A DNA stretch of 64,000 bases from Limonium bicolor (lineage: Eukaryota; Streptophyta; Magnoliopsida; Caryophyllales; Plumbaginaceae): contig CM041781.1 of the NCBI GenBank assembly GCA_023374045.1, positions 142,902,982-142,966,981 of the forward strand. Reading direction: 5' to 3'. A program made the position numbers and the translations under genes. The notes below the pieces were generated by a model. It saw nothing but the letters and a program-made list of their open reading frames with translations. It was not told the origin of the DNA and did no database searches. Shown one piece after another: positions 1-26,904 of this stretch. Numbering within the stretch: the first letter of the stretch is position 1; every line of letters starts with the position of its first letter.

Positions 1-1457
1 TCTCACACATCCCTCACTATTTACAAACAAACAAAAACAATTAAAACTCTCACTCTCACTTTTTCTACTCTCTCTCCTCCTCTCATTCTATTCTCTCACG
101 TGGAAGCAGCCCCCTCCCTCTCTCTTTTTCCTTCTTCTTCCTCCAAGCCATGCGATTTCCATGGTGAACAAGAAAGACAACACAAAACAAAACCACCACC
201 TTCTCTCCCTTGTAACTCCCTCCATACTTCTCCAAAAATTAAAAAACACCCCATTGTGTTCCTCTCTCCGAGAGCTACACTTTCATCTTTCCAAATCCAA
301 AAACAAGCATTTTCGATTTTGAGGGTATATCCCATTTGAAGTTTCAGCACCACCATTAGAGCCACCTTGGTCTCCTTGTTCTTTCGAGGTAAAGATCTCT
401 TTAAAACTCCATCTTTTTCCAGCTTAAAAAGGCAAAACGAATTTGGTGACTAAACCCTGGTTTGGTCTCTCTTGCTCCAGCCGATTTTGGCATTGTGGTG
501 GTGTGAGAAATCTTGTTCTTGAGCTAACCCAAACAACTCTTGAGCTCTTGGAAGTATAAGTTTTCTACTAACCCTAAGACCTAGATTAAAACTTGATTAT
601 GGTTAGGGTTAGTATTTAGCATTGAATGTGTATTGAAATATGTTTGTGTATGGGTTGTAGTGTTAGATTTGTTGAGTTTGCAAACCGAAGAGAGAAGAAG
701 GAAGAAAGAAAAATCTAGAAGGGAAACAAGGTGAGAACTCTCATTGTGTAGTCTTGAGTATATATGTATGTAACAGATTTTATAATAAGTTTGAATTAAT
801 AGTGAAAATGACAATGTGATAGTAGTGTAATGTGTATAGAGAAAACAAGGTTTTAAACCTTAAAGACATTTAAAAACTTGTAAAACAGATTGGGAAATGA
901 GGGTTGAGTGCAGGAATTTTTATGTTGTTTTGGTATAGTATGGTGTATGGGAGCTTGTGTTTTGATGTTTATTGTAACAGGTGAGTTAAGTGTTGAAATG
1001 TGAGTAAAACATGTGGTGAGTGTATAAAAATACAAGGGAGACTATGGCAAAATTTACCTAGGATTGAACACTTAGTGAATTTAAACTAGGTGAATGAAGA
1101 GTGTTGTAACAGATTTTGTTAAGGAAAATAGAGGGTAAGTGGAGAGAGCTAGGTAATGAATTCTAGATGCATTAGGAGTGTTAGAATGACATTAGAAGAG
1201 GGAGATGTAGAGGAGAAGTGTAAGTGTTAAAATCTGTAGCATAAGGTAACTAGAGAAGAAACTATTGAGTGTTGAGTGAAACTTGGAAATTATGTGAGTA
1301 ATGAGTGTGGAATTGTGTAAGGAGTTAGGAAATGAACTAGGGTGTATTAGGAGGTTTAATTAATGTTATAACATGTGGGAATAAGTGTAGGAACAATGGG
1401 GAAGTAATGGGTAAAAGAGAGGATTGAAAACAGAAATTAAAATGCAAATACTGGGCT

Positions 1458-1848
1458 GGACCGGACTTGCGACCGGACTTGCAAGTCCGGTCGCCCAGAT
1501 TTACAAAGACGGGGAAGCTACTGGAATCGACCGGACTTGCGACCGGACATGCAAGTCCGGTCGGGCAGAAAAATTTCCCGTCAGAAAGCTACTGGAATCG
1601 ACCGGACTTGCGACCGGACATGCAAGTCCGGTCGAGCAGAAAAATTTCCCCTCGGTATGCTACTGGAATCGACCGGACTTGCGACCGGACTTGCAAGTCC
1701 GGTCGGCAGAAAAAATTTTCCGTAAGAATGTTACTGGATCGACCGACTTGCGACCGGACATGCAAGTCCGTCGGACCAAAAATTTTCCCGAAGAAACCTA
1801 CTGGAATGGACCGGACTTGCCAAGGTCGGTCGCAAGTCCGGTCCTGAC
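1458..1848 (+). repeat. Tandem hairpin array in the 5' LTR, six units
   Basis: About 70-bp units, each starting with a palindromic core: gaccggacttgc, a 10-base spacer, then gcaagtccggtc (12-base arms). The spacer itself begins gaccggac, so alternative foldings are possible. Cores are separated by about 35 bases of related sequence (aaaatttccc...ctactggaatc). I count six cores here and five in the 3' LTR. The last core has a different spacer. Confidence 0.9.
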
Positions 1849-2886
1849 AAAAAAAAAAAAAAAAAAAAATTATTTTAATTTAATAATAATTGTATATATA
1901 TATGTATATATGTATACCCATACATATATGTATATGTACATGTATGAAAGCATGCCAAAGTTAAGTAAGGAATAAAACCTAAGTAAAGGAAAAGTAAGTA
2001 AGTAAAGAACAAATGTAAGAAGTATAAGGACATAGTAAGTATGAGTTAAGTAATGATAGTTGGATTAATCATTTAATTGTATGTATATAATAGGACTTGG
2101 TTTGTGACATCGAAGGACGTTTGGAATTACGTACGACGGTGAACGGTATGAATTCCTCATGCCCCGAATGCTATCATGGCTACTCTGATTTGTGTGTTGT
2201 GTGCTAATTGATCACCAATAAAGATAAATGCACGAATCGGAGTTAAATTTGCTACTTGTGATTATGTAGTGTTGTATGATGTTGTATACTCTCTTAATTC
2301 TTAGTTTGTATACTTCATGAAATGTATGGATGATTATGATGCTGTATGAATGTTGTAATGTACTGTGACCGATTGTAATGTGATGGACTTCTAACTTGTT
2401 CCTAACAAGCTAACCATCCTAACTTAAATTGGTAATTAAATTGGAATGAGTAGAAGTCCGATATAGTTTCGGCCACGCGTGAGGATGCGGAGTCACGAGA
2501 GGTTGGCTCCAATTCCTGACTCTTAAACTGGTCCGCGGCCCAAATCCCTTAAGTGGGTAGCATCCCGGATTAGTGAGTCAAGTAAATCCCGGATGTGGGA
2601 CGGAGTAGTCCCCAAGGCCGGAGGTCCCGACGACTTGACTTGAGTATAAGTAAGTAAGTAAGAATGAGTAAGTAAAGTAAAAAGGAAGTAAGTAATTGTA
2701 AGTAAGAAGAAGTAAGTAATGAGTAAAAGAGTAATATGCATTCCGATTAACCCGGATGCACAATTTGGCTAACCTTGTGAAGGTAAGTATTGTGAACTCT
2801 ATTGTATTGTTGCCTTGAAGTGAATGATGTATTGTAATGTATGTATGTTTGTATGTAAAGCATGTATGTATGAGTAATGAACATGT

Positions 2887-2980
2887 TTAGCGGTCGCCAA
2901 TTAGTCGGCGTACCCTTGCTAGCAATCGGTATATGCGGAGTTCATGCGCAGCGTAAGCTGACCCCCTCGGGACCATTTTT
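2887..2980 (+). promoter_or_regulatory. LTR block conserved between the two Tekay elements
   Basis: Contains cggtcgcc, agtcggcgtaccc, gcggagttcatgc and gctga in this order. The same motifs occur in reverse complement in both LTRs of the second element (14860-14950 and 27431-27520) and in the 3' LTR here (13211-13304), although much of the remaining LTR differs. Conservation suggests an RNA or DNA signal of the Tekay LTR; the role is inferred only. Confidence 0.5.
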
Positions 2981-3459
2981 ACTACACGCAGGTACTAGAG
3001 ATTGATGAAGCTGTGAAGATTAGTTTTTTTCTTGTCTTCTTTTTGGGATGTAAACATGAATTTATGATGGGTGTACTAGTAGTACATGGCTGTAACTTTT
3101 GATTAGCCGTGTACCATGTGGTACACCTTTTTGGATATTGATAGAATGGAGCATTGGTATAGATGAGCATAGGAAGACTCATTCTTTTGGTAAACTTGGA
3201 AGGTTGTAATGACTACATTTTGAATACTCGGTAATCCTTGTAGTGAATTATTGTAAATGGTAAGTTTTTTAGTAGCTCGGTATCTATTGGCCATCAGACC
3301 GTTACTGTAAGTATTAGTAGCCTTGCTAGCCGTATGGGCGGTTAGCGGCATTGTTTCACCCGCCGAAGTAAGTAAGTATATTCTTCCGCTGCGAACTCAT
3401 TGAATTAACGGACGATTAGACGGTAAGCATAGGATTAACGGTTGGGGTGTTACAAAAAG

Positions 3460-3471
3460 TGGTATCAGAGC
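3460..3471 (+). other. Primer binding site (tRNA-iMet)
   Basis: tggtatcagagc, complementary to the 3' end of plant initiator tRNA-Met, five bases after the LTR end. This marks the start of minus-strand DNA synthesis and fixes the element's orientation as plus. Confidence 0.95.
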
Positions 3472-4343
3472 GTAGTTACGCTCTGATGTCCTAAAGTACC
3501 GAGCATAGGAGATTACCGAGTTAGGATTTCAACCGTCTTAAGACGGATATCTAGAAACCTAACTAGGACTACCGTTGTTAACACGGACCCTTGACGTTCT
3601 TGGAACGATACTTGTTTAAATTCCAAGACCTTTGAGTCATTTCTTGCGGAGCCTAATGAAACTGTTAAACATTCAGATGTCAGGACGAGGCCGAGGCCGA
3701 CCTAGAGGCGAAGCCTCAGATGGAACCGGCGCGCAGACGATAGCTGAGATCGTCGCCGCCACGGTAGCACAGATGCTACCACAAGTTATACAAGCTGTAC
3801 AACAATCTCAGCAGAACCAAACTCAAACGGGACCAACCCCTCCCCCTCCACCCAGAGAAGCTAACTGGGTAAAAGCTGTAGCGGAACTCCGCCCTCCTTG
3901 CTTTAGGGGCGAGAGTGATCCGGCTAAGCTAGAAGCGTACATCTCCGAAATGGAGACCGCTTTGAGACACTCGAAGCTCCTGCTGGAGTTCGAGTCAGAG
4001 TAGCCGCCTACTACTTGAAGGATGCGGCCATGGATTGGTGGAAATTGGTGAAGCACGAGCATGTAAGCGACCCCACCTTCGATTGGGATTCCTTCGCATC
4101 TCTCCTCCGATCCAAGTACTATCCGGAGCATGTAAAAACGAAGAAAAGGCTAGAGCTAGACGCCTTAAAGATGACAGACAAGATGTCTGTGGATGAGTAC
4201 TACTACGCACTTCACCTCCATCCTCTCCTCCGTCTCCTCCCCGATCTTGGATACACCGGCCAGGTGTTGGTCGATCGCTTCTATGGCGTCTGAGCCATCG
4301 CCTTCGGTACGGTATGGGCTATACCAGATTTACCTCCCTTCAG

Positions 4344-4456
4344 GTAATATCGGTTGACCCTTAGTATCAATTCAATTCATTTCAATTCCTTGAATTCCTT
4401 GAATCTTTTCCTTATTCTTTCTTAAACATCATCCCGGCTAATACCTGAAACTTCAG
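4344..4456 (+). other. Intron-like insert in gag (113 bp, phase 0)
   Basis: Starts cag|gtaatat and ends acttcag|gag, with a ctaat branch-point-like site 17-22 bases before the end. Removing it joins two halves of the gag domain in the same frame at a codon boundary. Read through, it gives an early stop. The exon edge cttcagg is present at both borders (4338-4344 and 4451-4457), like a duplication made on insertion. An intron in an element that copies itself through RNA is unexpected. Confidence 0.65.
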
Positions 4457-4729
4457 GAGTGTTATCACGCGGCCTCCCGCGTTGAGATCACTTGCCAGTT
4501 AAGGGATGAGGAAACCGCGCTGAAGCGCAGGCTAACAACAAAAACACCAGCACCGAGGAGCAGAACCAGGGTAAAAGCTGGAAGAAGAAGAAAGGGAACT
4601 TCTTTTCTCAGAAGAAGTCCCCAAGTGAGAGCAGTGCCCATGCTGAGCAGGGCAAACCAGCTGAGATCCTTCAGCTTGGTTATTCTGCACCGGTGGCAGC
4701 TAAGCCACTGAGATCACACCCTCCTAAGG

Positions 4730-4812
4730 GTAAATTCTACTTCCAATTTGTATTCGTATAAGTATCATTTCTAGTATACCCACGCACACATGTGCTAACC
4801 CTCTAACCTCAG
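4730..4812 (+). other. Intron-like insert in gag linker (83 bp)
   Basis: Donor ctaagg|gtaaat, acceptor taacctcag|gttc, AT-rich inside. Excision rejoins the Lys/Ser-rich linker to the segment before the zinc knuckles. A nearby one-base shift must also be assumed for the knuckles to be in frame, so this call is weaker than the first insert. Confidence 0.5.
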
Positions 4813-5155
4813 GTTCTAGCTCGGGCCGCCAAAACCTTCTCCGACGGCCGCACCTATGTGTGCAGGAAGTGCAACCAGGACCATCCTGGTAAGGATTGCT
4901 ACGGGAGGGAGATCAAGTGTTACAACTGTCAGAAGTTGGGGCACACTGCTAATCGATGCCCGGAGAATGGGAAGCCCAAAGGAAATTTCCAGAACTATAA
5001 GCAGCGAGAGGGCAAGGAGGTGGCATCCGGCGATGCACCGGCCCAGCAGGCACCTCAGGGACAGGGATCCCGGGGCCCTCAGAGAGGCGCACCTCAGAGG
5101 CAGCCTGTTCTGCATGTGATTGACCGCGATGGGCCCGGTTCGAAATCCGGCCAAG

Positions 5156-5313
5156 GTAATCACCTAAACCTTTAATCCTTGAAATAGCATGCCTAGTAGC
5201 AGAGTAATTGTATGATTGAATGCATGAGTAAATGAATGAATTGAAGTGTGTACTGAGCATGAAATGAAGTAGTTGAAACTAGTACTCACCGTAGATGAAA
5301 TTTGTAACCATAG
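5156..5313 (+). other. Intron-like segment between gag and AlkB (158 bp)
   Basis: Donor caag|gtaatc right after the gag linker; acceptor accatag|gaaac. Joining is phase 1 and continues in frame for about 30 codons, without a stop, into the AlkB N-terminal region. The same donor also fits, in the same phase, an acceptor at 6195/6196 just before the protease. Splicing is inferred from sequence only. Confidence 0.5.
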
Positions 5314-6056
5314 GAAACTTTAGTATCTGTTACCCAATACCGGTAACCTTGAATCAAGAAGAGATCGACATCACCACCACGACTACACCAACAAACAGTG
5401 TCAGGTCATCCGCCCAGGTATGATCTTATTAAGGGGATACCTGACACCCGAAGCACAAATCTCAATCATTCGACGATGCAACGAGCTAGGAACGGGTCAA
5501 GGAGGATTTTACACACCCGAATTCCCCGGTGGAGGAAGCGAGATGAAGCTGAAGATGATGTGCTTGGGAAAGGACTGGAATCCTTATACCAAGCATACCA
5601 GAAGACACGACAACATGACGGAGCGACGCCACCGACAATACCACCAGAGTTTCAGACCCTCATCACTCAAGCAGTAGAACTTGCACACACAATGTGAACA
5701 TGAACCAATCCCCGCACTTGAAGCGGACCTTTGTATCGTCAACTTCTATGAAAAAGAAGGACGACTTGGGTTACACCAAGACAAGGACGAGACAGCGGAA
5801 TCTCTTGAACAAGGAGTGCCCGTAGTGTCTTGGTCCATTGGTGATGACGCCGTATTCCTGTATAGCGAGCAGAAGCGTGTGGACCCGCGCAGAGAAATGG
5901 GTATTGAGATCAGGAGATGTCCTAATCATGGGTGGAAACTCTAGGATGCTGTATCACGGGATCAACAAGATCAAGTTGAATACGGCACCGCCGGCAATAA
6001 TCAATGCCACACACATGAAACCAGGACGCCTGAACCTTACCTTTAGAAAATATTAA
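5314..6056 (+). pseudogene. AlkB-like Fe(II)/2-oxoglutarate dioxygenase (ALKBH1-type), captured by the retroelement, frameshifted
   Basis: AlkB enzymes oxidise N-alkyl groups on nucleic acid bases, using Fe(II) and 2-oxoglutarate, to demethylate DNA or RNA. Core motifs are present in order: PGMILLRGYL lead-in and GGFYTPEF (5411-5525), MMCLGKDWNP (about 5557-5586), VNFY with GRLGLHQD (5738-5782; iron-binding His 5774 and Asp 5780), SGDVLIMGG then LYHG (iron-binding His 5955), and the oxoglutarate-binding RLNLTFR (6027-6047) just before a TAA stop at 6054. The pattern is closest to plant ALKBH1-like proteins. Four frame changes (near 5400, 5590, 5690, 5885) break it, yet no core motif is lost. 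It sits between the gag zinc knuckle and the protease, where no Tekay domain normally occurs. Capture from a host gene is inferred; whether it is still expressed is unknown. Confidence 0.88.
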
Positions 6057-6195
6057 ATCCTAGTATCATGTAATCTATTAGTAACGTGTATTAGAGACAC
6101 GACATGTATGATGGTTGGTTTATCAATAAAGAGCAGTGTTGATTTAATTCCACTTGTGTCCACCATCAATACTTATCCAATTGTGAATCCAATAG

Positions 6196-6620
6196 GTTGT
6201 GGACTCGGTACCGAAGGTAACCTGAGCATCCTCACCGAAGCACAAGCCGGCAGAAGCGGCACCATATCTAACGGGAACCTTCCCAGTAAATGGCATTGAT
6301 GCCAATGTGCTATTCGACTCCGGCGCCTCTCACACCTTCGTATCACCATCCTTTGTGAAGAGGTTGAAGCTAGATGCGGATGAGATACCGAATTTCATGG
6401 TTACTCTCCCATCGAAGGAGCGAGTAAAGTGTACCAAATACTACCAATCAGCCACCATCGAAATTAAAAAGGAGGCGTTTCCCATTTCCTTCATCGAATT
6501 CAATGGATTGGGATTCGACCTAATCATTGGAATGAATTGGTTGGAGCGGCACAAGGGTAGAATCCTCTGCGCCGAGCATCGACTGCTGCTCAAGAGTCCT
6601 TCTGGGGTTACCGTATCTTA
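6196..6620 (+). pseudogene. Retropepsin-type aspartic protease (PR) domain of pol
   Basis: Catalytic motif LFDSGASHTFV (Asp codon at 6316) and the later hydrophobic LIIGMNWL, as in Ty3/gypsy proteases, which cleave the gag-pol polyprotein. Upstream, in frame after the AlkB stop, the reading frame stays open from 6057 to 6299; a one-base shift near 6285 leads into the DSG motif. Two possible splice acceptors, aatag|gttg (6195/6196) and cgaag|gtaa (6216/6217), lie 21 bases apart and both keep the frame when joined to the gag donor at 5155. No independent start codon is obvious. Confidence 0.85.
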
Positions 6621-6846
6621 CCGCCAGAGACCGAGAGAGCCTCGACCACCCTTATATCTGCTATGGCTATGTACCGGGAGCTCAGAAAGGGCCACGAAGT
6701 GTATCTGTGTCATGTACAAGACCTGGAGAGAGATCCAGAGTTCAGTGATGATGTACCGATTGTATCTGAGTATCCCGATGTATTCCCTAGGAGCTACCCG
6801 GCATGCCACCACCGAGAGCAGTTGAATTTGAATTGATCTATTGCCA
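6621..6846 (+). other. Linker between protease and reverse transcriptase
   Basis: Low-conservation segment joining PR and RT in the pol polyprotein. Remnants of the usual pre-RT region can be read, but the frames change and no domain is recognisable. Confidence 0.5.
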
Positions 6847-8090
6847 GGTACCGTCCCATTGCTAGGGCACCGTACCGCATGGCACCAGCAGAGATGACCG
6901 AACTGAAAGAACATTGAGAGATCTTCTAGACAAAGGGTTTATACGCCCGAGCGTATCACCCTGGGGAGCACCGGTCTCTTCGTGAAGAAGAAGGACGGTA
7001 GCCTCCGCCTTTGTATTGACTACCGCGAGCTGAATGCGGTCACAGTCAAAAAAATACCCCTGCCAGCGCATCGACGACCTATTTGACCAGTTGAAAGGAG
7101 CATCGGTCTTTTCCAAGATTGACCTCCGTTCTGGGTATCATCAGATTGCAATCAAAGAGCAAGACATCGAGAAAACGGCATTCCGTACCAGATATGGCCA
7201 CTACGAATTCACAGTGATGCCATTCGGTTTGTCAAACGCACCGGCAAAATTCATGGACCTCATGAATCGTTTATTCAGTGAGCAGTTGGACACTTTCGTT
7301 TGTGGTCTTCATCGACGACATCCTTGTATATTCTAAGTCACCAGAGGAACATGAAATTCACACTTGAGGAAAGTGCTTGAGAGAACTGCGCGAGAACCAG
7401 CTTATGCGAAGTTCTCCAAATGCAGTTCCGGCGAGTTTGGCTAGATCAGGTATCATTCCTTGGTCATGTCATCTCGAGCGCAGGTATCTCAGTTGACCCT
7501 TCTAAGATAGAAGCTGTACGATCATGGCCTAGACCTAAGACTGTTACCGACATTAGGAGCTTCTTGGTCTAGCCGGTTACTACCGGAGATTCGTAAAGGA
7601 CTTCAAAAGTCGCTAAGCCCATGACTACATTGATGAAAAAGGATGCACGTTTGTATGGACGGACGAGTGCGAAGTATCATTTCAGAGCCTAAGGACTCAT
7701 TGACCTCAGCGCCCATCCTTACTCTTCCAGAGGGCACAGAGGGATTTGAGGTATACTGTGATGCATCAGGCAAGGAATGGGATGCGTACTCATGCAGCAT
7801 GGCAAGGTTGTTGCTTATGCCTCCCGCCAGCTGAAGAAACATGAGGAGAATTACCCGACTCACGACTTAGAGTTAGGAGCCATTGTCTTCGCCTTGAAGA
7901 TATGGCGACACTATCTCTATGGGGTAAGCACATACCATCTACTCCGATCATAAGAGCTTACAGTATGTATTCACTCAGAAAGAACTCAACTTGAGACAGA
8001 GAAGATGGATGGAATTTCTCTCAGACTATGACATCAATCTGCAGTATAAGGAAGGGAAGGCTAACGTTGTAGCCGACGCCCTGAGCCGTC
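6847..8090 (+). pseudogene. pol: Reverse transcriptase and RNase H domains of pol (frameshifted)
   Basis: Copies element RNA into DNA and degrades the RNA strand. RT motifs in order: ARAPYRM (about 6865), WGAP and [16 protein letters not shown] (about 6962-7035), [11 protein letters not shown] (about 7110), MPFGLSNAP (about 7218) and the catalytic FIDDILVYS (7308-7334). FLGHVIS and the connection region follow. RNase H shows YCDASG (7753), [12 protein letters not shown] (about 7798-7833) and THDLELGA (about 7858). [10 protein letters not shown] (8062-8091) marks the tether to integrase. Several one-base frameshifts and a stop near 7950 make this copy non-functional as written. The motif wording is typical of Tekay chromoviruses. 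Confidence 0.92.
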
Positions 8091-9571
8091 GAGCACACTC
8101 GCTCCATTCGCTACTCGCTTCTTCTAGCTTGGTTGACGAGGTGCGAGATGCTCAGTTGAGCGACCCTTACCTAACCGAAATCAGACAAAAGATCGAAAAT
8201 GGTACATTTGAAAAGAAAAAGTATGACTTCAAACTACACGAAGATGGTTTGATTCGGTTGAATGGCAGGCTATGCGTCCCCGAAGCAATGCAGAGCTAAG
8301 GGATCGCATCCTGCGAGAGTCACATAGTTCTACATTATCAGTCCATCCGGGAGCCTCCAAGATGTACAAAGACATGAAGAGGTACTTCTGGTGGTCTGGA
8401 ATGAAGTCAGATGTGACAGAATTTGTGCTAAGATGCTTAACATGTCAGAAGGTGAAATTTGAACATCGTAGACCGGGCGGAATGGTACAATCAATGCCAA
8501 TTCCGGAGTGGAAATTTCATGATATCTCCATGGATTTTGTTGTAGGACTCCCACCTGCTAGGGGAGGACTCAACATGATCTGGGTCGTAGTTGATCGCCT
8601 TACCAAGGTTGCCGATTCATACCGATGAAGGACACCTGGAAGGTAGTGAAGCTAGCTGAGCTTTTTGATAAGGAGATTATCAGACATCACGGAGTCCCTA
8701 AGACCATAGTATCTGACCGCGACACCAGATTTCTTTCGAGATACTGGAGAGCTACAAGGGAAGCGTGGGTACAGAATTGAAGTTGAGTACCGCCTTCCAT
8801 CCTCAGACCGACGGTCAGACAGAAAGGACCATCCAGACACTGGAGGACATGCTTCGGGCATGTGCCTTGGACTTTCAGGGGAGTTGGTTAGATAAGCTTC
8901 ATCTTATCGAGTTCTCGTATAATAATAGTTATCACGCCTCGATTAAGATGTCGCCTTTCCAAGCTCTATACGGTAGACCTTGCCGTACACCCTTGTGTTG
9001 GGATGAGTCAAGTGAAGCGGTCATAATAGGACCGGAATACCTTGAGCAAGTGCAAGCCGAAGTACAACAGATTAGAGCCAACATGAAGGCAGCCCAAGAT
9101 AGACAGAAATCCTATGCGGATGTGAGACGACGCGACCTTGAGTTCGCCGTGGGCGACCAAGTGTTCTTGCGCGTTTCACCTATGAAGGGTGTCTTCCGTT
9201 TTGGTCAGAAGGGCAAGCTAAGCCCGAAGTTTGTAGGGCCGTACACTATCACCGAAAGAGTTGGTTCAGTAGCCTACAGGTTGGCATTACCTGAGGACTT
9301 GGGGCGTGTCCATGATGTATTTCATGTGTCACAACTCAAGAAGTATATGGCTGATCCTTCTCATGTCTTAGAGCCCGAGAGACTTTCCATTGAGCCGAAC
9401 ATGAGATATGTGGAAACCCCAGTGAGAATCTTGGATAGGAAGACCAGAGACACTCGCCATAAGTCGATACGAATGGTGAAGGTCCTATGGTCTAACCATG
9501 ATGTCGAAGAAGCGACATGGGAGTTGGAAGATGCCATGAAGGCTAAGTATCCACAGTTATTCGTAGACTAG
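8091..9571 (+). pseudogene. pol: Integrase with C-terminal chromodomain (pol 3' part)
   Basis: Inserts the DNA copy into the genome. The HHCC zinc finger lies at about 8318-8450 (HSSTLSVH then CLTC). The DDE core has its first Asp in SMDFVVGLP (about 8530), its second in VSDRDTRF (about 8711) and its Glu in TDGQTERT (about 8808-8830). The last 268 codons (8765-9571) are open and end with the GPY-like region and a chromodomain (about 9406-9568: [22 protein letters not shown]). Chromodomains of this class target insertion toward particular chromatin. Frameshifts occur before 8272 and between 8628 and 8765. Stop TAG at 9569. Confidence 0.93.
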
Positions 9572-9991
9572 TAGTCTAGTATGTAATATACGGGTACGGG
9601 TCGTACCCCTTTTAAGGGGGTAGAGCCCTTTTGCTTTTGCATTGCTTCGGGGTAAGCATTGCATTTTGTATGGCACATGTAGTGCAATGAATTTAGTATG
9701 GGTGTATGTACGTGTAATGTGTAATGAATGAGTATGTGTAATGTATGATGTATGGATGTAATGTGTATTGTGAATGGTAATGAGGTATGTATTGTGTATT
9801 GTGGTATGGTATGAATGAGAATGATGGATTGTGTATATGAACTGTGTATGATGCTTGAGCTGTGTATGCTTGGAATGTGGAATGAAGTAAACACCTCATA
9901 GGTGTAGTAAGACACATTAGGACAATGGTTTGCCTAATGAGTAGAGTAATGAAACTATTAACCTTGAGCAACTTTGAGGGCAAAGTTTCTT
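9572..9991 (+). other. 3' untranslated region of the chromovirus
   Basis: No coding signal. Contains a short inverted repeat (accccttttaagggggt, near 9606) that is also found in the second element (19692-19713, reverse), and a stretch rich in tgtatg/taatg. Ends with ctttgagggcaaagttt, also shared with the second element. Confidence 0.7.
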
Positions 9992-10003
9992 AAGGGGGGT
10001 AGA
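9992..10003 (+). other. Polypurine tract
   Basis: aaggggggtaga immediately before the 3' LTR; primes plus-strand DNA synthesis. The same tract in reverse complement borders the second element's LTR at 18346-18360. Confidence 0.9.
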
Positions 10004-10314
10004 TTGAAAACCCCGTATTTAAAAATAGTGATTAATTAGGCTAAAGTAATTTAGAAGCTTAATTAAGTATAAATAATTATTAGGGAACAAATCCCGAAGA
10101 AAACGGATCCTTAAAATGGATTAAAAACATTACCGAACCTTAAAGCGCGTTTTCGAGGTAACCGGGAAACGTGTCTTTAGGCGGGTCAAATAGACTCGTA
10201 ACAGTTTTAGGCAACTAAATATTCATTAATAAATATTAGTGAGGCTGTAGGACCAATAAAATCAAGAAACGAGAAATTAGAAAAAACTGTCAAAAACGGG
10301 AAATTGTGGGGTAG

Positions 10315-10325
10315 AAATATAAATA
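10315..10325 (+). promoter_or_regulatory. TATA-like element in LTR
   Basis: aatataaataa about 310 bases into the LTR, followed after about 65 bases by a long CT-rich tract as seen near plant transcription starts. A candidate start for element RNA; the matching part of the 5' LTR lies outside the window. Confidence 0.35.
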
Positions 10326-11853
10326 ACACAAACTATTGTGTCCAATAATGTAAAAAGAATTTAAAACCCCTATACTCTTGTGTGTGTCCGATTTTCTCCA
10401 CTCACACACACTCACCCTCTTCTCTTTTACTCACAAACAAAACAAAACAATAAAAGAAACAACTCTCACATTTTTCTCTCTCCTAACCCATCTCTCTTTT
10501 CCTCACGTGGACAGCACCCTCACTCTCTCTTTTTCCTCTCTTCTTCTACCTCCATGCGATTTCCATGGCTGCTTAAGAAAAACAACACAACCAACCACTT
10601 CTCTCCTTTGTAACTCCCTCACACTTCTCCAAAAATTATAAAAATTACACCATTGTAATCCCCTCCTCAAGAGCTACATTTTCATCTTTCCAAAATCCAA
10701 AAATAACACTTTCGATTTTGAGGGTATATCCATTTGGAGTTTCAACACCACCATTAGAAGGCCCTCCTTCTCCTTGTTCTTCTAAGGTAAAAATATTTTG
10801 AAAACTCCATCTTTTCTAGCTCTTGTGGGCAAAACGAAAATCTAGACTAAACCCTTGTTTGGTCTCTTGTGTTCTAGCCGATTTTGGCTTGTTGAAGGAG
10901 TTGGAAACCTTGTTCTTGAACCACTCCAAGCTTCATTTGCACTTTGAGAGGTAATATGAATTCTAAACCCTAGAAATCTACATTGAAAGCTTAAATAATA
11001 TTAAGAGTAGTTTTGGTATTGAATGTGTGTGTATATGGGTGATATGTTAGATTTGTTGAATACCAAAACCGGTAGAGGGAGAAGGAGGAGAAAGAAGAAG
11101 AAAGGAAATCTAGAAGTAAAGCAAGGTAAGGAATGTTCACCTTTGTGTAGCTTTATAAATGTATATGTAACAGATTTTAGAATGGAAATGGGTATTGTAA
11201 AATATAATGTTTAGTAGTATGATGGGTAAGAGAAACTAAGCATTTTGAAACCTTTGAAACATTGTAAAAACTGTTATAAAACAGATTGGGAATTGAGTGT
11301 TGAGTGCAGGGAATTTTAGTGTTGTTTTGGTGTTGATATTTGTATATGGGAGCTTGTATAGTTTTGGTTATTGTAACAGGTGAACAAGTGTTGAAATGTG
11401 AACTAGAATGTGTGGTGAGTGTATAAAAATACAAGAGAGACTATGGCAAAATTTACCTAGGATTAGAACACTTAGTGAATTTTAAACTAGGTGAATGAAA
11501 GTGTTGTAACAGATTTTAAGGAAAATAGAGGGTAAGTGGAGAGAGCTAGGTAATGAATTCTAGATGCATTAGGAGTGTTAGAATGACATTAGAAGAGGGA
11601 GATGTAGAGGAGAGTGTAATGTTAAAATCTGTAGCATAAGGTAACTAGAGAAGAAACTAGTTGAGTGTTGAGTGAAACTTGGAAAATTATGTGAGTAAAT
11701 GAGTGTAGAATTGTGTAAGGAGTTAGGAAATGAACTAGGGGTATTAGGAGGTTTAATTAATGTTATAACATGTGGGAATAAGTGTAGGAACAATGGGGAA
11801 GTAATGGGTAAAAGAGAGGATTGAAAACAGAAATTAAATGCAAATACTGGGCT

Positions 11854-12177
11854 GGACCGGACTTGCGACCGGACTTGCAAGTCCGGTCGTGCCCAGATTT
11901 ACAAAGACGGGAAAGCTACTGGAATCGACCGGACTTGCGACCGGACATGCAAGTCCGGTCGAGTAGAAAAATTTCCCTCGGTATGCTACTGGAATCGACC
12001 GGACTTGCGACCGGACATGCAAGTCCGGTCGAGCAGAAAAATTTCCCGGCAGAATGTTACTGGAAGCGACCGGACTTGCGACCGGACATGCAAGTCCGGT
12101 CGGACCAAAAATTTCCCGAAGAAACCTACTGGAATGGACCGGACTTGCCCAAGGTCGGTCGCAAGTCCGGTCCTGAC
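11854..12177 (+). repeat. Tandem hairpin array in the 3' LTR, five units
   Basis: Same palindromic cores as the 5' LTR array, with one unit fewer. The unit missing relative to the 5' LTR comes from the middle of the array, so copy number changed in one LTR after or during insertion. Confidence 0.9.
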
Positions 12178-13785
12178 AAAAAAAAAAAAAAAAAAAATTA
12201 TTTTAAGTTAAATAGTAATTGTATATATATGCGTATGTATACCATACATATATGTATATGTACATGCATGAAAGCATGCCAAAGTTAAGTAAGGAAGTAA
12301 AACCTAAGTAAAGGAAAAGTAACTAAGTAAAGAGCAATGCAAGAAGTATAAGGACATAGTAAGTATGAGTTAATTAATGATAGTTAAATTAATCATTCAA
12401 TTGTATGTATGTAATAGGACTTGGTTTGTGACATCGAAGGACGTTTGGAATTACGTACGACGGTGAACGGTATGAATTCCTCATGCCCGAATGCTATCAT
12501 GGCTACTCTGATTTGTGTGTTGTGTGCTAATTGATCACCAATAAAGATAAATGCACGAATCGGAGTTAATATGCTTACTTGTGAATATGTAGTGTTGTAT
12601 GATGTGTATATTTTCTTTAATCTTAGTTTGTATACTTCATGAAATGTATGGATGATATGAATGTGTATGTATGATGTATTACACTGTGACCGATTGTGAT
12701 GAGCTGGACTTCTAACTTATTCCTAACAAGCTAACCATCCTAACTTAAATTGGTAATTAAATTGGAATGAGTAGAAGTCCGATATAGTTTCGGCCACGCG
12801 TGAGGATGCGGAGTCACGAGAGGTTGGCTCCAATTCCTGACTCTTAAACTGGTCCGCGGCCCAAATCCCTTAAGTGGGTAGCATCCCGGATTAGTGAGTC
12901 AAGTAAATCCCGGATGTGGGACGGTGTAGTCCCCAAGGCGGAGGTCCCGACGACTTGACTTGAGTATAAGTAAGTAAGTAAGAATGAGTAAGTAAAGTAA
13001 AAAGAGAAGTAAGTAATTGTAAGTGAGAAGAAGTAGTAATGAGTAAAAGAGTAATATGCATTCCGATTAACCCGGATGCACAATTTGGCTAACCTTGTGA
13101 AGGTAAGTATTGTGAACTCTATTGTATTGTTGCCTTGAAGTGAATGATGTATTGTAATGTATGTATGATTGTATGTAAAGCATGTATGCATGAGTAATGA
13201 ACAAGCATGTTTAGCGGTCGCCAATTAGTCGGCGTACCCTTGCTAGCAATCGGTATATGCGGAGTTCATGCGCAGCGTAAGCTGACCCCCGGGGGACCAT
13301 TTTTACTACACGCAGGTACTCGAGATTGATGAAGATGTGAAGATTACTTCATTTCTTTATCTTCTTTTGGATGTAAACATTGAATTTATGATGGGTGTAC
13401 TAAGTAGTACATGGCTGTAGTTTTGAATAGCCGGTGTACCATGGGGTACACCTTTTTGGATATTGATAGAATGGAGTATTGGTATAGATGAGCATAGGAT
13501 AGGAGCTCATTCTTTGGGTAAACTTGGAAGGTTGTATGAATACATTTTGAACACTCGGTAATCCTTTGGTAGCGAATGTATTTGTAATGGTAAGTTGTTT
13601 GGTAGCTCGGTATCTATTGGCCATCAGACCGTCACTGTAAGTATTAGTAGCCTTACTAGCCGTATGGGCGGTTAGCGGCATTGTTTCACCCGCCGTAGTA
13701 AGTAGTAGTATTCTTCCGCTGCGAACTCATTAAATTAACAGGACGATTAGACGGTAAGCATAGGATTAACGGTTGGGGTGTTACA

Positions 13786-13949: not shown

Positions 13950-14283
13950 GCATGCCCAGCGCTCGGGTCATCACCGCGTGCCCCGTGTCGACGCCACACG
14001 TGCACCTGGGTCGAAGTTTGTGCCCCGTGCCCCGCCCTCGGGTGACGTCGCGTGCCCTGCCCCCGGGTCGACGCCGCGCGCCCCACCTAGGTTGACGTCG
14101 TACGCACCACCTTTGGATCGTCACCGCGTGTTGCAGCTGGGTCGACGCCGCGCGCCTCGCCCCTAGGTTGTCACCGCGCGCCCAGCACCTGAATCAATGC
14201 CTTGCGCCTGGATTGACGTTGCATGCCCTGCCCCTCGGGTCGTCACCGCGCGTCCAGCGCCCGAATCAATGCCTCGTGGCCCA
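13950..14283. repeat. GC-rich degenerate minisatellite, left block
   Basis: Repeats built on gggtcgacgccgcgcgccc and gggtcgtcaccgcgcgccc, with an interspersed ccgaatcaatgcc, unit roughly 25-30 bases. Open frames through it are a product of the GC-rich repeats. A related block occurs at 32650-32835, beyond the second retroelement. Confidence 0.75.
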
Positions 14284-14288
14284 TTGTG
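14284..14288. other. Target site duplication, left copy (second Tekay element)
   Basis: ttgtg directly before the LTR start; an exact match to 30890-30894. Confidence 0.9.
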
Positions 14289-17200
14289 TGTAACACCCCT
14301 ACCGCTAAACATAACATTATCTCCAAATTGCCTCGTACATCCTTACCTTCGCAGTGGAAATCCGAATCCAACGGCGGGTGAAACAATGACGTTAGTCTCT
14401 CACGTGACTAATAAGGCCTAATCCAAATACAGTAACGATCTAATGGACCGGAATACCGAGTACTTAAACAATTAAAATCAACACTTCAATTCCAAACCGA
14501 GTATATACAATTCTCTAATCATTACAGTGCCCAACACTTACAATCCAATATACCGAGTCTACTATGGTACAATCCAAAATTCTTCATTTCTCACAAGCCT
14601 ATACATCCATCTATGAGTTCAACATCTCTCTCAAGTCTATCAAGGTCTGCATAACTTCCAAATACTAAGGGGTGTACAACAGGGTACACCGGCTACTCAG
14701 AAGGGCTACAAGCCCGTGTACAACACAGTTCGCTATTCAAAACATCCTAATACAAAAGTGTAACAATCCAGTCTCTGACATCGACTACCCATTCATCAAT
14801 AACAGGATCTACTGTACACGACATCGACCATCGACCATCTCGGGTACCTGAAATAAAAATGGTGCCCCAAGGGGCTCAGCGAATTGCTGGCATGAAATTC
14901 GCATACTCCGCGTGCTAACGGGGGTACGCCGACTACTTGGTCGCCTACATGGAGTTCATTTTATTTCAAGCAAACATGCTATATGAACAACATTATAATC
15001 ATGCATAGACACACTCATACATAAAGCATCACACACGTAATGGAAACAATTCACAAGTCATCCATTCAACACTTACCGAGGCCCCTGAGATTCACTTCTC
15101 AAGTTCTAGCCTCATTACTTGTTAGTCAATTTCTCATTCGGGTTAATCGGATGTTCTCAACTCTTTTACTCTTGATCAATGACTTACACTAGCCATGATC
15201 TTTACTTTACCAATTACTCCTCTTTTCAATAATACTCAAGTCAAGTCGGTATGACCTCCGGGCAGAGACTACTCTATCTCACCACCGGGCTTTAGGTTGG
15301 CTTACTTCCCCGGGTTGCTGCCCATAATGGGATTTGGACCCTGAGGAAGGTTGGGCCAGAACTTGGAAACAACCTCTCGTATTTCCTCATTCTCACGCGT
15401 GGCCGAAACTATATCGGACTTCTTACATACTCCAAGTTACCATTTTTCTCAAGTTAGAAATGTCACAAGGTTAGGGAGTTAATGAGAATCTTTCATTCCA
15501 TACTTCATGGTTAGTACACTTCACATCCAAGCAAGTAAATACTTCATCCAACAATTATTCCTTTCATGAATTATAAAACCTTATTGGATAGTCACCACTC
15601 AACAAGGAATAATACATCACAAGCATAAGGAAATGCAATAAACCATATTCGTGCATTTATCTTGATTAGGTGATTCCATATAACAAACAAACACACAAAT
15701 CGAGGAAACCTCGTTAGCATACAGGACATGAGAAAATCATACCGTTCACCGTAATTCTCGGGTTGCCGACTCACCTTTGGAGTCCAACTATTCAATTCCT
15801 ATAACATACATGGAATCGGGCGGTTAATTATCTATAATTAACCTAACCCATTTCATATTTAGTGTTTCTCGATTTACAATTACTAACTCCTTACATTTGA
15901 AACTCATTCACATAAGTTACATACTTCTCATTACTTCTCAAGTTTGTTTATACCACTAATGACCATTACATATCATTAATTAAGTCTTAACAATAATATA
16001 ATATCAATACCATTCAAATTCCCATCTTAAAGTTCCATTTATACACATCTTAAAGCACTTTTGGGTTGGTCCGGGACCTTGTACGGGTCCCAAGTCCCGG
16101 ACCCAACCTTAGGCAAACTCTCGGCATTTTTAATGGCTGGTCCGGGTCCTAGTACTGGACTCAAGTCCCGGACCAGGTGATGAAGAAAGTCTCGGCCATT
16201 TTAAATGGGGAGGTCCGGGTCCTTGTATGGGACCTAAATCCCGGACCACTCCCTGACTACACTCACGGCCGTTTTTACATGCTGGCCCGGACCCTGCTAC
16301 ATTTTGACATATTTTACATTTTCAGTTTTTGTTCTAACTCCATTCTTTTGCCCATTTCTTCCCCAATATTCCCACATATTTTCTAGCATGTTTTAGCACT
16401 AATTTGACACTCTAAACCTCCCTAATTCCTTCACTAAACTCATTACTCATTTCTTGGTTTCCTTACACAATTTTCCCACTCTTATTTTTCCTAAAAACTC
16501 TTTAAGTGCAGTTTCTGTTCTCTTTCTTTTCACTAACCCAATGGCCCTTCTACTAATGTCATCTAGTTATGCAACTTGCATTATTTACATCCCATGTTCT
16601 ACTCGACTACACAATTCTCTTCTAATCCAAAACCAAGGTGATTAACTACTCAAATTGAACTCTAGAACACACCTAGACCAACCTAGGTTATTTCTCCTCA
16701 TTAAACACCTAAGTCATCTAGTTTGCTACAGAAATTTCGACAGAGTTTCCCCACAATTTTAAAATTCCCAAAGCATTATTTTCATTCACCTAAATATACT
16801 CAACTAGCCATATACTCAAGGGATACTAACAACACATAATTTCCTGCACAATCTCAATAATAATCCCAATGTGCATAAGTCTTAAATACTTGGCTCTAAG
16901 GCCCTTAAACATTACATAGATAATACTAGAATACCTCCATTACTTGCTTACCATTGCAGTAGCTTACACAATACTAAGACAATGTAATTTCCCATACTAC
17001 AAGACATTAAAATTCATTCAAAGGTAAGTCCATTACCTTGTGATTTCTAGTTTTCCTTTCCTCCTTTCTTTCTCCTGTCTTCTTGCTCTTCCTTCCTTTG
17101 TTTCTCATTTACAATTTGGCCAAGCTACAGCCCGTGTTCGAGGGTATACATAACAACACTAGTAAATACTTAACTCTAGAATTAAACCCTAGAATTCAAG

Positions 17201-18345
17201 AAAAGGTTTGAAGCTCAAAAATGAGGGATTACCTTCAAATCTCAAGATGAAGTGTTTGGCTAGCAAGACAACAAGATTCTAGCTCCTAACTTGAAGCCAA
17301 AACCGGCTGGAACAAGAAGAGAATGGAGTTCAAGACCTGGGAATTTTTGGTTGTCAAAATAAGCTAGAAAAGAAAGATTTTTGAACTTCTTTTTACCTTA
17401 AACCAACCAGGGGATGATGTTCACAATGCTCTTCTTCAAACTTCAAAAGGAGCTCAAACCATAGTGACAAACTTCACCATTTTTGGATTTCGAAAAGAGG
17501 GGAATGATCTCCAAGAAGAGGGGAGTTTAGTTGTGTAATTTTTGTAGAGTTTCAACCTTGTTTAAGGCATGAAAGATGAAGAAGAAGAGAGGGCTGAGTG
17601 GAGCTCTACAAAATCGCCATTGCTGGCTGGGAGGAAGAATATGGAGTTCAGAATGGGGGAGGGAATACGTGAGAGAAGAGAGAAATGAGGAGGAGAGAGA
17701 TTAAGATTTGCTTTTGTACTTTCTTTCTTTTTACTCTATGGTTTTGTCCTCTAGTAACCAATAGAGAGTGTAGGAATCAATTAATTGGATAAGAGGAGTG
17801 CTGACTCACTCTCAAAAACCGGCCCACTATATTAATGCCCCGGGAGGGCGTTTTCGTCTTTTCGAAATAAACGCTACAATTCTCCCGGTTTTGTCACTAT
17901 TCACTAATCGGGCCCGTTTTCCGGAATTTTCTCGTTTCTTTAATTTTAATGGCTCTAGACCTTCATTAGTGTTTAATTATAGATATTTGATTGACTATAA
18001 TTTTTACGAGTCCATTAAACCCGCTTAAAGTCACGTTTCCCCGGTTTATTCGAAAAACGTGCTTTAAGGCGCGTTTGCGTTTTTAACCCATTTTATGGAT
18101 CCGTTTTATTTGGGAATTGTTCCCGCATGTTCATTTAGGCGTAATTAAGCCCTAGGAATCCATCTAGGATCCTAATCGAGGACACATACCTCCTATGGTT
18201 GTGTAACTCTCATTTTTACGTTTTACTTTTTAAGCGTTTTCTCTTTTTTGGTTTTTTTCTTCACCAATATTCTTTAGGCACTATTAGGCCCTTAAATACC
18301 ATATTAGAATGATTTAATCACCATAGTTAAGTTCATGGTATTTCA
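14289..18345 (-). repeat. 3' LTR of the second Tekay element (4057 bp)
   Basis: Plus-strand text runs tgtaacacccc ... ggtatttca, the reverse complement of TG...CA. Direct repeat of 26905-30889. It holds two extra segments of about 45-50 bases (near 14785 and 15760), and lost part of the last hairpin unit near 16285, compared with the other LTR. Confidence 0.93.
16058..16302. repeat. Hairpin repeat array in the LTR (second element, 3' LTR)
   Basis: Units of about 73 bases with cores of the form ggtccggg ... cccggacc, separated by ctcggccatttttaatgg-like spacers. Same architecture as the first element's LTR array but a different sequence. The fourth unit is shortened here. Confidence 0.8.
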
Positions 18346-18360
18346 ATCTACCCCCCTTAA
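18346..18360 (-). other. Polypurine tract (second element)
   Basis: Plus-strand atctaccccccttaa, i.e. ttaaggggggtagat on the element strand, right beside the 3' LTR. Nearly identical to the PPT of the first element. Confidence 0.88.
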
Positions 18361-21271: not shown

Positions 21272-21276
21272 CATTG
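21272..21276. other. Target site duplication, left copy (nested element)
   Basis: cattg, matching 23771-23775 exactly. Confidence 0.9.
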
Positions 21277-21972
21277 TGTTAGGATTTCGGGCCCATTTCC
21301 CTAGGATCGTGGTGAGATCGACATGGTTACCGAAGAAGAAAAAACCACAAGATAATGTAAAGATAAAATAGTGACACAAGGATATATGGTTCGGTCCAAA
21401 CATGACCTACGTCCACGGAGGAGATAGAACAACTTTATTAAGAAGATGAGGATTACAAGTTTACATGAGGATTACCCAACCAACCCATCAACCCGTGTTT
21501 CCCTTGGTGTTTTTACCTGAGTCCCTTTGAGTTCCCATAGAACCACCCTTGACTCCCTTGGATGTGATCCCCACAAGTTGGGATGATCCAAAGCTACGGG
21601 TTACTAGATCTATTTATAGTGCTAGATCTAAACCCTTCACTTATCCCAACGTTAACCTTGTAACAACCATATAATAATGGCTCACAAGTTACAACGGTTA
21701 CAACTTAATTAACACCTAAGAACAATTAACACTAGGGTATCTGGAAAGCCAGAAGTCTAAACTTCTTATTTTAAGGATTTACCTTCCTCATAACTCTCCT
21801 CATAATGTTAGAAAACCAAATGCTTTAGACGCCATTAATTTGCACCACATAAATGCTCCCACTAATGCATCTTCAACTTCCGTGAAACTCTTCGTGAATA
21901 CGACATTAATTGGAAGACGAAACCAATTAACTTCACAAGAGTAACTCAACAGATTTAGCATTAATTCTAACA
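21277..21972 (-). repeat. 3' LTR of nested element (696 bp)
   Basis: Starts tgttaggatttcggg and ends ttaattctaaca. A purine-rich aagaggaag tract (element strand) lies just inside. Lacks an 11-base segment (near 21710) that the other LTR has. Confidence 0.92.
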
Positions 21973-23061
21973 ATTCTTCCTCTTAATGCTCAATCCGGTC
22001 AATCACATACCACCATTGATGCCAAACTCCCTCTTGAAGAATAATCCCAAAAACAGCCCACACAAGGACTAAACCGGATAACTTCATCTGGACTGTTTGC
22101 ATTCCAACTTCGGTAAATTGACCACTCCTCCTCGAGCCTTCAAAGACTCATCTGGTCCAAATCTCCATGGACCCGCCACAAACACGAAGTAAGTAGCAAC
22201 TCAGGAAACAACTACGCAACCAAAGACAATAGTGATCTCTTCCGTCTTTATCCGGTTCTCGCAAAGTCTCCAAACATGACCTAACAGCAGCTTCACAGTT
22301 GATCACCACGAAGTTCTGTTTGTTGTTATATGCGTGCTACCACAACCCTAGTCCTTCACTTGCTAGATGATCTCCAGTGCTCCATGGAAGTCCACGATCC
22401 GTCACGTGACCTGAGAAAAATATTTTTCTCGTTTTCTACACCAATCCCCCACCATTGAAGCTTCACTCGATCTTACCATTCTTTATTATCCTTACTCCCC
22501 ACAAAAGGGTTTGTAAAATAAAGAACTAGATCTAGCTTCAAATTCTGAAAGATGCACCGGATTATTCAAGATCCAAGATCTCCAACTTGATCTCCTTCCA
22601 ACAACACATCATCATCTCCAAGTACATCCCCACACCGAAACACACATGTAGTTGACGATTTTTTTACGAGCTCTTCCTCTTTACCAAAATCCAAACTTCT
22701 TCTTAAGAGCACGCCACCTCTCTCATGAAAACACCTTACCATCACCGTACTTGATACAACATTAGTCACAAAACTCTCATCATTGCTCAATGAAGAATAA
22801 AACCACTTTTACTCTTCAGTGGATTTACATCTTCATTAGCAAGAATTGAGTGCCCAGACTTCAAAAATATCACGAACACGGTGTTCCAATCAAGGCAAGG
22901 AAATGCATGAGCTTCAAGGCACAACGATTTTCTTTCTCCAACACCTTCTTCCACTTTTCACTTTTATCAAAAGCCACATCATCATGAATCACCATTCTCT
23001 CTTCCCAATGACATCTCCACCAGCACGAACATCCCAAAAAACCATGAGCTCTGATACCACT
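21973..23061 (-). other. Internal region of nested element
   Basis: 1089 bases with no recognisable coding domain; short ORFs on both strands look like chance. Carries the PBS at its right end. Confidence 0.7.
23042..23059 (-). other. Primer binding site (nested element)
   Basis: On the element strand tggtatcagagctcatgg, whose first 12 bases match the 3' end of initiator tRNA-Met, two bases from the right LTR. Confidence 0.9.
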
Positions 23062-23770: not shown

Positions 23771-23775
23771 CATTG
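23771..23775. other. Target site duplication, right copy (nested element)
   Basis: cattg directly after the right LTR. Confidence 0.9.
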
Positions 23776-26700: not shown

Positions 26701-26888
26701 AGGATTTTCCTTCTCTCTGGCGCTCTTTCCCGAGTTATACATTGGGGGATGTGGAGGGCGGGTATAGATATTGTAGGTTTCCAGTTCACACTAGGGTTCC
26801 TATCTAGCGTATCTCTCACGCTATCACTCAACCCTTAGCCCTAAATCTCTAATTCCTAACTCCGTATTTCCTAAACTAGGTATTTCCA
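23776..26888 (-). other. Decayed internal region of the second element, gag side
   Basis: About 3.1 kb where gag, protease and RT would be expected on the minus strand. I found no zinc knuckle, DSG or DD motif. Short ORFs on both strands have no family features. Confidence 0.55.
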
Positions 26889-26899
26889 GTCTGATACCA
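26889..26899 (-). other. Primer binding site (second element)
   Basis: Element strand tggtatcagac; the first ten bases match initiator tRNA-Met. Separated from the LTR by five bases, as in the first element. Confidence 0.88.
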
Positions 26900-26904
26900 C
26901 TTTT

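What the first reader, a model, noticed from the sequence alone, without database searches (positions are those of the whole stretch)
5314..6056. AlkB-type nucleic-acid demethylase inside a Tekay chromovirus
Seen: between the gag zinc knuckle and the protease is a segment with the full AlkB set (N-F-Y, H-x-D, distal H, R-x-N-x-T-x-R). Known: AlkB proteins remove alkyl marks from DNA or RNA; Tekay elements normally carry only gag, PR, RT, RH, IN and chromodomain. Inferred: the element captured a host ALKBH1-like gene. An element-encoded eraser could strip adenine or other base methylation from its own RNA or DNA copy, to escape host marking or aid reverse transcription. I do not know of this arrangement being described, but I cannot search.
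Basis: partly seen in the sequence, partly recalled or inferred. Interest (0 to 1): 0.93.

Follow-up and report, generated by a model that had tools for sequence, protein, structure and literature searches.

The report
Methyl-erasing enzyme inside a plant retrotransposon
A decayed plant retrotransposon carries, between its gag and protease genes, a broken copy of the catalytic domain of an ALKBH1-like enzyme, from a family that strips methyl marks off nucleic acids; it was likely captured from a host gene and is predicted to have been joined to the element's own Gag protein by splicing.

Summary
Window 5314-6053 encodes an AlkB catalytic domain between the gag zinc knuckle and the protease of a chromodomain-bearing Ty3/Gypsy element. 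All ten signature residues checked are present, but this copy is dead: the domain runs through at least four frame changes. The best solved match is rice OsALKBH1. The nearest proteins are six unnamed database ORFs that form one clade with it (95/100), apart from 30 other plant-side rows. Compared with the nearest full-length ORF, it keeps 58 of 59 family-conserved sites but only 44 of 87 variable ones, so it evolved under selection before it broke. New here: the 1,061-bp insert (5156-6216) starts with GT, ends with AG and is flanked by AAGGTAAYC. An internal acceptor at 5313 would join AlkB to Gag in frame; removing the whole insert would lead back towards Gag-Pol. Splicing, copy number and activity are untested; the own-genome search did not complete. 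The idea has a precedent: a Phalaenopsis Ogre-like Gypsy family with an active ALKBH5-like m6A eraser (2022). This would be an independent second case, differing in element lineage, AlkB type and gene position.

The parts
1..3454 (+). 5' LTR of the element; its start lies left of the window
   Evidence: aligns to the 3' LTR; ends ...TGTTACA
3460..3471 (+). primer binding site TGGTATCAGAGC, initiator tRNA-Met type
   Evidence: read in the sequence; tRNA assignment recalled
3632..5172 (+). gag with CCHC zinc knuckle, broken (open pieces 3632-4003 and 4858-5172)
   Evidence: ORFs; PF00098 on 4858-5172; no Pfam hit on 3632-4000
5153..5161 (+). AAGGTAATC: left copy of the direct repeat flanking the insert; predicted splice donor AAG|GT at 5156
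   Evidence: one of 4 tied best of 363 GT sites in the interior against a recalled consensus; AAGGTAA occurs only here and at 6214 in the interior
5156..5313 (+). predicted intron, GT...AG, 158 bp, AT-rich (GC 0.342); would join gag to AlkB in frame (phase 1)
   Evidence: not tested on RNA
5295..5297 (+). ATG in frame with the AlkB start: alternative start of a separate AlkB ORF
5314..6056 (+). AlkB (ALKBH1-like 2OG-Fe(II) dioxygenase) domain with its own stop 6054-6056; at least four frame changes
6057..6216 (+). AT-rich stretch (GC 0.369) with AATAAA at 6125: captured 3' UTR and/or distal part of the predicted intron; second predicted acceptor AG at 6215-6216
6214..6222 (+). AAGGTAACC: right copy of the flanking direct repeat
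6217..6627 (+). gag-protease linker (frame 0) and protease DSGASHTFVS (frame 1)
   Evidence: PF08284 E 4.1e-26 on 6241-6627; no hit for the frame-0 piece 6057-6296
7034..7993 (+). reverse transcriptase and RNase H pieces
   Evidence: PF00078, PF17917, PF17919
8272..9571 (+). integrase (H2C2 zinc binding, SH3-like) with C-terminal chromodomain
   Evidence: PF17921; PF24626 and PF00385, the latter E 1.1e-4 at 22.5 bits against cut-off 25.1
9993..10004 (+). purine-rich tract AGGGGGGTAGAT next to the 3' LTR (putative PPT)
   Evidence: read in the sequence
10005..13785 (+). 3' LTR, 3,781 bp, TGAAAACC...TGTTACA

Best explanation
The chromovirus copy at window 1-13785 carries a broken ALKBH1-like AlkB domain between gag and protease, which was likely captured from a plant ALKBH1-type gene and is predicted to have been spliced onto Gag, so that the enzyme would travel in the particle and would demethylate the element's own RNA or single-stranded cDNA. 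Predicted expression: the insert 5156-6216 is used as an optional intron. Unspliced RNA gives Gag, ending GQGNHLNL-stop. Use of the 5313 acceptor gives Gag-AlkB, ending at 6054. Use of the 6216 acceptor removes the cargo and leads to Gag-Pol. Shown: the domain, its residues, its position, the splice-like signals and their phases, and the constraint on its sequence history. Inferred: capture from a host gene, splicing, packaging, substrate and benefit. The copy in the window can no longer do this.
For: AlkB domain by Pfam and by PDB sequence search. The intact relative P0001 is predicted as an AlkB fold (mean pLDDT 94.4) with OsALKBH1 (5xoi, 5xeg) as the top two structural matches, TM 0.94 and 0.92. 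Catalytic residues 10 of 10; relative to P0001, 58 of 59 conserved columns are kept, 41 of 55 intermediate and 44 of 87 variable ones, Fisher p 1.8e-11 between first and last. One clade with six unnamed ORFs, 95/100, with 30 other plant-side rows outside. The domain is 71% identical to P0001, while P0001 is 52-58% identical to the plant rows outside its clade in a 34-row alignment; the LTR pair is 90% identical. A one-off recent capture from a host gene of the sampled kind should look more host-like. Splice anatomy: donor 5156 among the 4 best of 363 GT sites; acceptors at 5313 and 6216 both in phase with it; AAGGTAA occurs exactly twice in the interior, at the two insert edges; 154 of the 155 AT-rich (GC 0.37 or less) 158-nt windows in 3677-9580 start in the two flanks of the AlkB exon. 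ALKBH1 is reported to act on 6mA in single-stranded or unpaired DNA (PMC10469495, abstract and passages).
Against: One copy only, and it is broken. No DNA context is known for the six related ORFs, so they could be host genes of plants related to the window's host. No RNA evidence for splicing; the donor consensus used is recalled; two or more AAGGTAA copies anywhere arise in 5.7% of 300 randomised interiors. Other AG sites are in phase too (e.g. 6253, by reading), and the protease frame needs one more frame change after the 6216 acceptor. The ATG at 5295 allows a separate ORF without splicing. A search for AlkB inside long proteins (length range set by a 1,199-residue carrier) gave 3 hits from 182 candidates, none with a retroelement domain. 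Scans for AlkB in viral contigs gave three loci with AlkB at 33-37% identity but no match to this element's zinc knuckle, protease, RT, RNase H or integrase pieces.
Confidence: 0.5

Rival explanations
1. AlkB is element-encoded cargo but is expressed as its own ORF, from the ATG at 5295 to the stop at 6054 with its own 3' end (AATAAA at 6125), like ORF2 of the orchid element; no splicing is involved.
For: In-frame ATG at 5295, stop at 6054 and AATAAA at 6125. The published orchid AlkB is a separate ORF (PMC9289625).
Against: Pol would lie behind gag's stop and the AlkB ORF unless the insert is removed. The in-phase donor and two in-phase acceptors would be coincidence. Relatives P0003 and P0027 have, by eye, other N-termini before the shared G-(P/T)-(F/Y)-D-I-C-Y-P start.
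Confidence: 0.22
2. One-off capture: this single copy picked up a piece of a host ALKBH1-like gene (intron end, last coding stretch, 3' UTR) by template switching, and the piece decayed with no role for the element.
For: Only one copy seen; it is broken; AT-rich flanks and AATAAA would be host intron and 3' UTR. Short direct repeats at both edges fit a switch at microhomology.
Against: The protein is far from the sampled host genes and forms a clade with other database ORFs. Its evolution before the break was under constraint, which could however have happened in a host gene. This rival survives if the unnamed host has an unsampled, divergent ALKBH1 gene.
Confidence: 0.25
3. The AlkB segment was brought in by another mobile element nested inside the chromovirus.
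For: A 9-bp direct repeat with one mismatch flanks the insert, the size of a target-site duplication of some DNA transposons (size recalled).
Against: No inverted repeat pairs the two insert ends; the repeat is also the predicted splice-site sequence.
Confidence: 0.03

Closest known systems
Gypsy_Pa_2799 family, Phalaenopsis AlkB-encoding Ty3/Gypsy elements (PMC9289625; abstract, Results parts 1-2 of 3, Discussion and passages seen)
   Same: LTR retrotransposon carrying an AlkB/2-ODD domain with complete Fe(II) and 2-oxoglutarate residues
   Different: Tat lineage sister to Ogre with a tRNA-Arg primer site, 25.5 kb; AlkB is ALKBH5-like and in a separate ORF2 of 565 aa, with demethylase activity shown in vitro. 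Here: chromovirus, tRNA-Met site, ALKBH1-like, between gag and protease, activity untested, one broken copy
Plant ALKBH1-type proteins (OsALKBH1, 5xoi/5xeg; ALKBH1C/1D-like)
   Same: Same catalytic domain; best sequence and fold match
   Different: Separate clade from 30 plant-side rows; sits inside a retroelement; no long N-terminal part as in many host proteins
Ogre elements with a putative intron between Gag and Pol (mentioned in PMC9289625; splicing details recalled)
   Same: Predicted intron after gag, so that splicing decides between products
   Different: Here the intron would hold a protein-coding cargo exon; splicing not shown
Tekay elements with 5' additional ORFs (PMC11728184, passages)
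   Same: Chromoviruses with an extra protein
   Different: Those ORFs lie 5' of gag-pol and no AlkB is named for them in the passages seen

Membership tests
AlkB / 2OG-Fe(II) dioxygenase superfamily | PF13532 domain with H-x-D...H iron triad and R-x-N-x-T-x-R | tested here: met
   10 of 10 residues; two of three pieces above the curated cut-off
AlkB / 2OG-Fe(II) dioxygenase superfamily | AlkB fold | tested here: met
   predicted on the relative P0001, not on the window copy:
Plant ALKBH1 subfamily | groups with plant ALKBH1 rather than other AlkB types | tested here: inconclusive
   OsALKBH1 is the best PDB match by sequence and fold, but by fold E. coli AlkB (TM 0.80-0.82) comes before animal ALKBH1 (0.58-0.61), and the tree held only ALKBH1-type, algal and bacterial rows; ALKBH2, 5, 8 and 9 were not included. 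Nesting with monocot-side rows not rejected, p-AU 0.46
Chromovirus (Ty3/Gypsy) | PR-RT-RH-IN order with chromodomain at the integrase C-terminus | tested here: met
   Chromo at E 1.1e-4 but 22.5 bits against cut-off 25.1
Chromovirus (Ty3/Gypsy) | tRNA-Met primer site (found in most chromoviruses, PMC6317226 passages) | tested here: met
   TGGTATCAGAGC at 3460; its match to tRNA-Met is recalled
Tekay clade | placement in an RT/RH/INT tree of reference elements | not testable with these tools
   no reference element set at hand
Phalaenopsis AlkB-Gypsy family | Tat/Ogre lineage with tRNA-Arg primer site | tested here: not met
   chromodomain and tRNA-Met site
Phalaenopsis AlkB-Gypsy family | ALKBH5-like AlkB | tested here: not met
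   the 21 PDB sequence matches of P0001 are OsALKBH1, bacterial AlkB and animal ALKBH1; ALKBH5 first appears at rank 40 by fold with TM 0.59
Active nucleic-acid demethylase | removes methyl groups from DNA or RNA in vitro | not testable with these tools
   needs an assay on an intact relative

The most novel reading that the evidence does not exclude
A lineage of plant chromoviruses makes a Gag-AlkB fusion by alternative splicing and packages its own ALKBH1-type eraser, which cleans adenine methyl marks off the genomic RNA or the single-stranded cDNA inside the particle; the cargo sits in an intron flanked by a duplicated AAGGTAA so that removing it restores Gag-Pol. It is a second, independent invention of retrotransposon-encoded demethylation after the orchid case.
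Probability: 0.3. Interest if true: 0.85.

Novelty: new variant of a known kind. Interest (0 to 1): 0.62.

Why it matters
If the family carries AlkB, two unrelated plant retrotransposon lineages have independently acquired two different AlkB subfamilies. That would suggest host methyl marks on element RNA or cDNA are a real barrier. The ALKBH1 type points to DNA 6mA on single strands as a possible target, beside the RNA m6A that the orchid enzyme removes in vitro. The intron-held cargo would also show how an element can add a protein without losing Gag-Pol.

Tried and rejected
Nested transposon as carrier: no inverted repeat pairs the insert ends. Second AlkB copy in the window: none at E 1e-3. 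The neighbouring minus-strand element (14281-30889): no match to this element's zinc knuckle, protease, RT, RNase H, integrase or AlkB pieces. AlkB inside long proteins: 3 hits among 182 candidates, an RNase-II-type fusion (domain name recalled) and two algal proteins. Viral contigs: nothing for the AlkB piece or the protease; three AlkB loci without this element's other pieces; one integrase match, L004. Prokaryote contigs: one distant protease match (27%) in a MAG. Close origin from monocot hosts: neither shown nor rejected; that group was named after seeing the tree. dN/dS and copy number: not possible without DNA of other copies. Host plant: not identified; ten further ORFs gave one Pfam hit, DUF4283.

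Full report
Observation. The finding is real. Three pieces of window 5342-6053 match Pfam PF13532 (E 1e-4, 5.2e-14 and 3.3e-13; the first is below the curated cut-off). The relative P0001 aligns over window 5420-6053 by tblastn. The N-F-Y, H-x-D, distal H and R-x-N-x-T-x-R residues are all there, 10 of 10 checked. The zinc knuckle lies before it (4858-5172) and the protease after it (6241-6627, RVP_2 E 4.1e-26).

State of the copy. The AlkB reading frame changes at least four times, and gag and pol are in pieces too. The 3' LTR is 10005-13785. The 5' LTR ends at 3454 and begins left of the window, so the element is not complete in the window and its target-site duplication cannot be checked. 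The LTR pair is 90.1% identical over 3,316 aligned bases, but unevenly: 72-88% in the first 1.2 kb of the alignment and 93-99.5% after that.

Element type. RT, RNase H, integrase and a C-terminal chromodomain follow in order. The primer site is of the tRNA-Met type (recalled), which PMC6317226 gives for most chromoviruses (passages seen). The chromodomain hit is E 1.1e-4 but 22.5 bits against a cut-off of 25.1. I therefore accept 'chromovirus'. 'Tekay' could not be tested.

AlkB type. The best solved structure by sequence is 5xeg (E 1.2e-19 for 5678-5941; 2.5e-71 for P0001). A model of P0001 (mean pLDDT 94.4, 34-row alignment) has OsALKBH1 entries 5xoi and 5xeg as top two matches, TM 0.94 and 0.92. 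E. coli AlkB follows at TM 0.80-0.82, animal ALKBH1 from rank 26 at 0.58-0.61, and ALKBH5 first at rank 40 at 0.59. So the enzyme is like plant ALKBH1; the fold match does not tie it to animal ALKBH1 more than to ALKBH5.

Relatives. A protein search gave 99 hits at E 0.001 or better. The top two, P0001 and P0002, are 61% identical (one frame of the broken domain as query) and come from unannotated ENA contigs of 26.6 and 10.0 kb; the 40 hits that bear a plant name are 34-47% identical. With the frames followed, identity to P0001 is 71%. A tree of 45 rows puts the window with P0001, P0002, P0003, P0026, P0027 and P0063 in one clade (95/100), and with P0001 and P0002 within it (98/95). The 30 other plant-side rows, 7 of them unnamed, lie outside that clade. 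Nesting with eight monocot-side rows is not rejected (p-AU 0.46), so the donor gene is open. A profile search with five of the six ORFs gave 4,486 hits at E 1e-20 or better, of which the best 120 were listed; those after the clade members were plant proteins of ALKBH1 type or unnamed ones.

Constraint. Against P0001, 201 of 210 columns align with 71% identity. At columns where at least 90% of the other rows agree with P0001, the window keeps 58 of 59; at 50-90%, 41 of 55; below 50%, 44 of 87 (Fisher p 1.8e-11 between first and last). Free drift since the split would not do this. It shows selection before this copy died, not where the gene then lived.

Splice anatomy. The gag frame reaches ...SKSGQ. 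At 5153-5161 lies AAGGTAATC. A GT at 5156 and an AG at 5312-5313 would remove 158 bp and give ...SKSGQ-GNFSICYPIP..., about where P0003 and P0027 read ...LG-PFDICYP and ...LG-TYDICYP. The same GT with the AG at 6215-6216 would give ...SKSGQ-GNLSILTEAQA, the reading that leads to the protease, which in this copy also needs one more frame change. AAGGTAA occurs only at 5153 and 6214 in the interior; 5.7% of 300 randomised interiors hold two or more copies anywhere. GC is 0.342 in 5156-5313 and 0.369 in 6057-6216, against 0.47-0.53 in gag, AlkB, protease and pol. Of 155 windows of 158 nt with GC 0.37 or less in 3677-9580, 154 start at 5139-5220 or 5989-6064. The donor scores 7 of 9 to a recalled consensus, as do 4 of 363 GT sites and none scores more. 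These are predictions; no RNA was seen.

Against the splice reading. An ATG at 5295 is in frame with AlkB, and AATAAA lies at 6125, so a separate ORF with its own 3' end, or a captured intron end, exon and 3' UTR, would look much the same. AG sites are many (18 in 5174-5401 and 14 in 6057-6261), so an in-phase one alone means little; the weight lies on its place at the start of homology.

Mechanism. ALKBH1 is reported to demethylate 6mA preferentially in single-stranded or unpaired DNA (PMC10469495, abstract and passages). Fused to Gag, such an enzyme would sit where the RNA is copied into single-stranded cDNA. An alternative target is m6A on element RNA: PMC12786077 (passages) summarises that m6A holds plant LTR element RNA in stress granules and that AtALKBH9B releases ONSEN RNA. 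Substrate and benefit are inference.

Literature. PMC9289625 (Results parts 1-2 of 3 and Discussion read; passages) describes Phalaenopsis elements of the Tat lineage, sister to Ogre, 25.5 kb, with AlkB in a separate ORF2, ALKBH5-like and active on m6A RNA in vitro; the authors detected the domain in no other of the plant genomes in their screen of 121. Searches for AlkB or ALKBH with chromovirus, Tekay, LTR retrotransposon, gag and transposable element, for citations of that paper and for Tekay extra ORFs (15 of 75 papers listed) showed no ALKBH1-type or chromovirus case; most listed papers were seen as listings only. Subscription papers and preprints are not in that library.

Verdict. A dead copy of a chromovirus with an ALKBH1-like cargo domain: a new variant of a known kind. 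Whether it is a family trait is the open question, and the genome search that would answer it was not available.

Noticed in passing
window 1459-1820 and 11855-12148: The LTRs hold 71-bp tandem units with internal inverted repeats (GACCGGACTTGC...GCAAGTCCGGTC); the 5' LTR array folds as RNA at -174.5 kcal/mol, z -11.2 against 100 shuffles.
   Followed up: partly
window 14281-30889, minus strand: A second, related element: about 4-kb LTRs 92% identical to each other, with stretches about 67-69% identical to the LTRs of element 1 and 71-73-bp palindromic tandem units of another sequence; no match to element 1's zinc knuckle, protease, RT, RNase H, integrase or AlkB pieces; internal ~700-bp duplication 21277-21966 / 23062-23766.
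   Followed up: partly
window 1-3454 against 10406-13785: The LTR pair of element 1 is mosaic: 72-88% identity in the first 1.2 kb, 99.5% in the next 400 columns, 93-97% after that, as if recombination or conversion had mixed copies.
   Followed up: no
window 38775-39032, minus strand: DUF4283 domain fragment, E 6.2e-10.
   Followed up: no
window 62016-62322 and 63303-63729: Tandem repeats of 106 bp (2.9 copies) and 214 bp (2 copies, 96%).
   Followed up: no
P0103 (database protein, Artemisia annua, 478 aa): A plant AlkB-type protein with the AlkB region partly duplicated in tandem, seen by eye.
   Followed up: no
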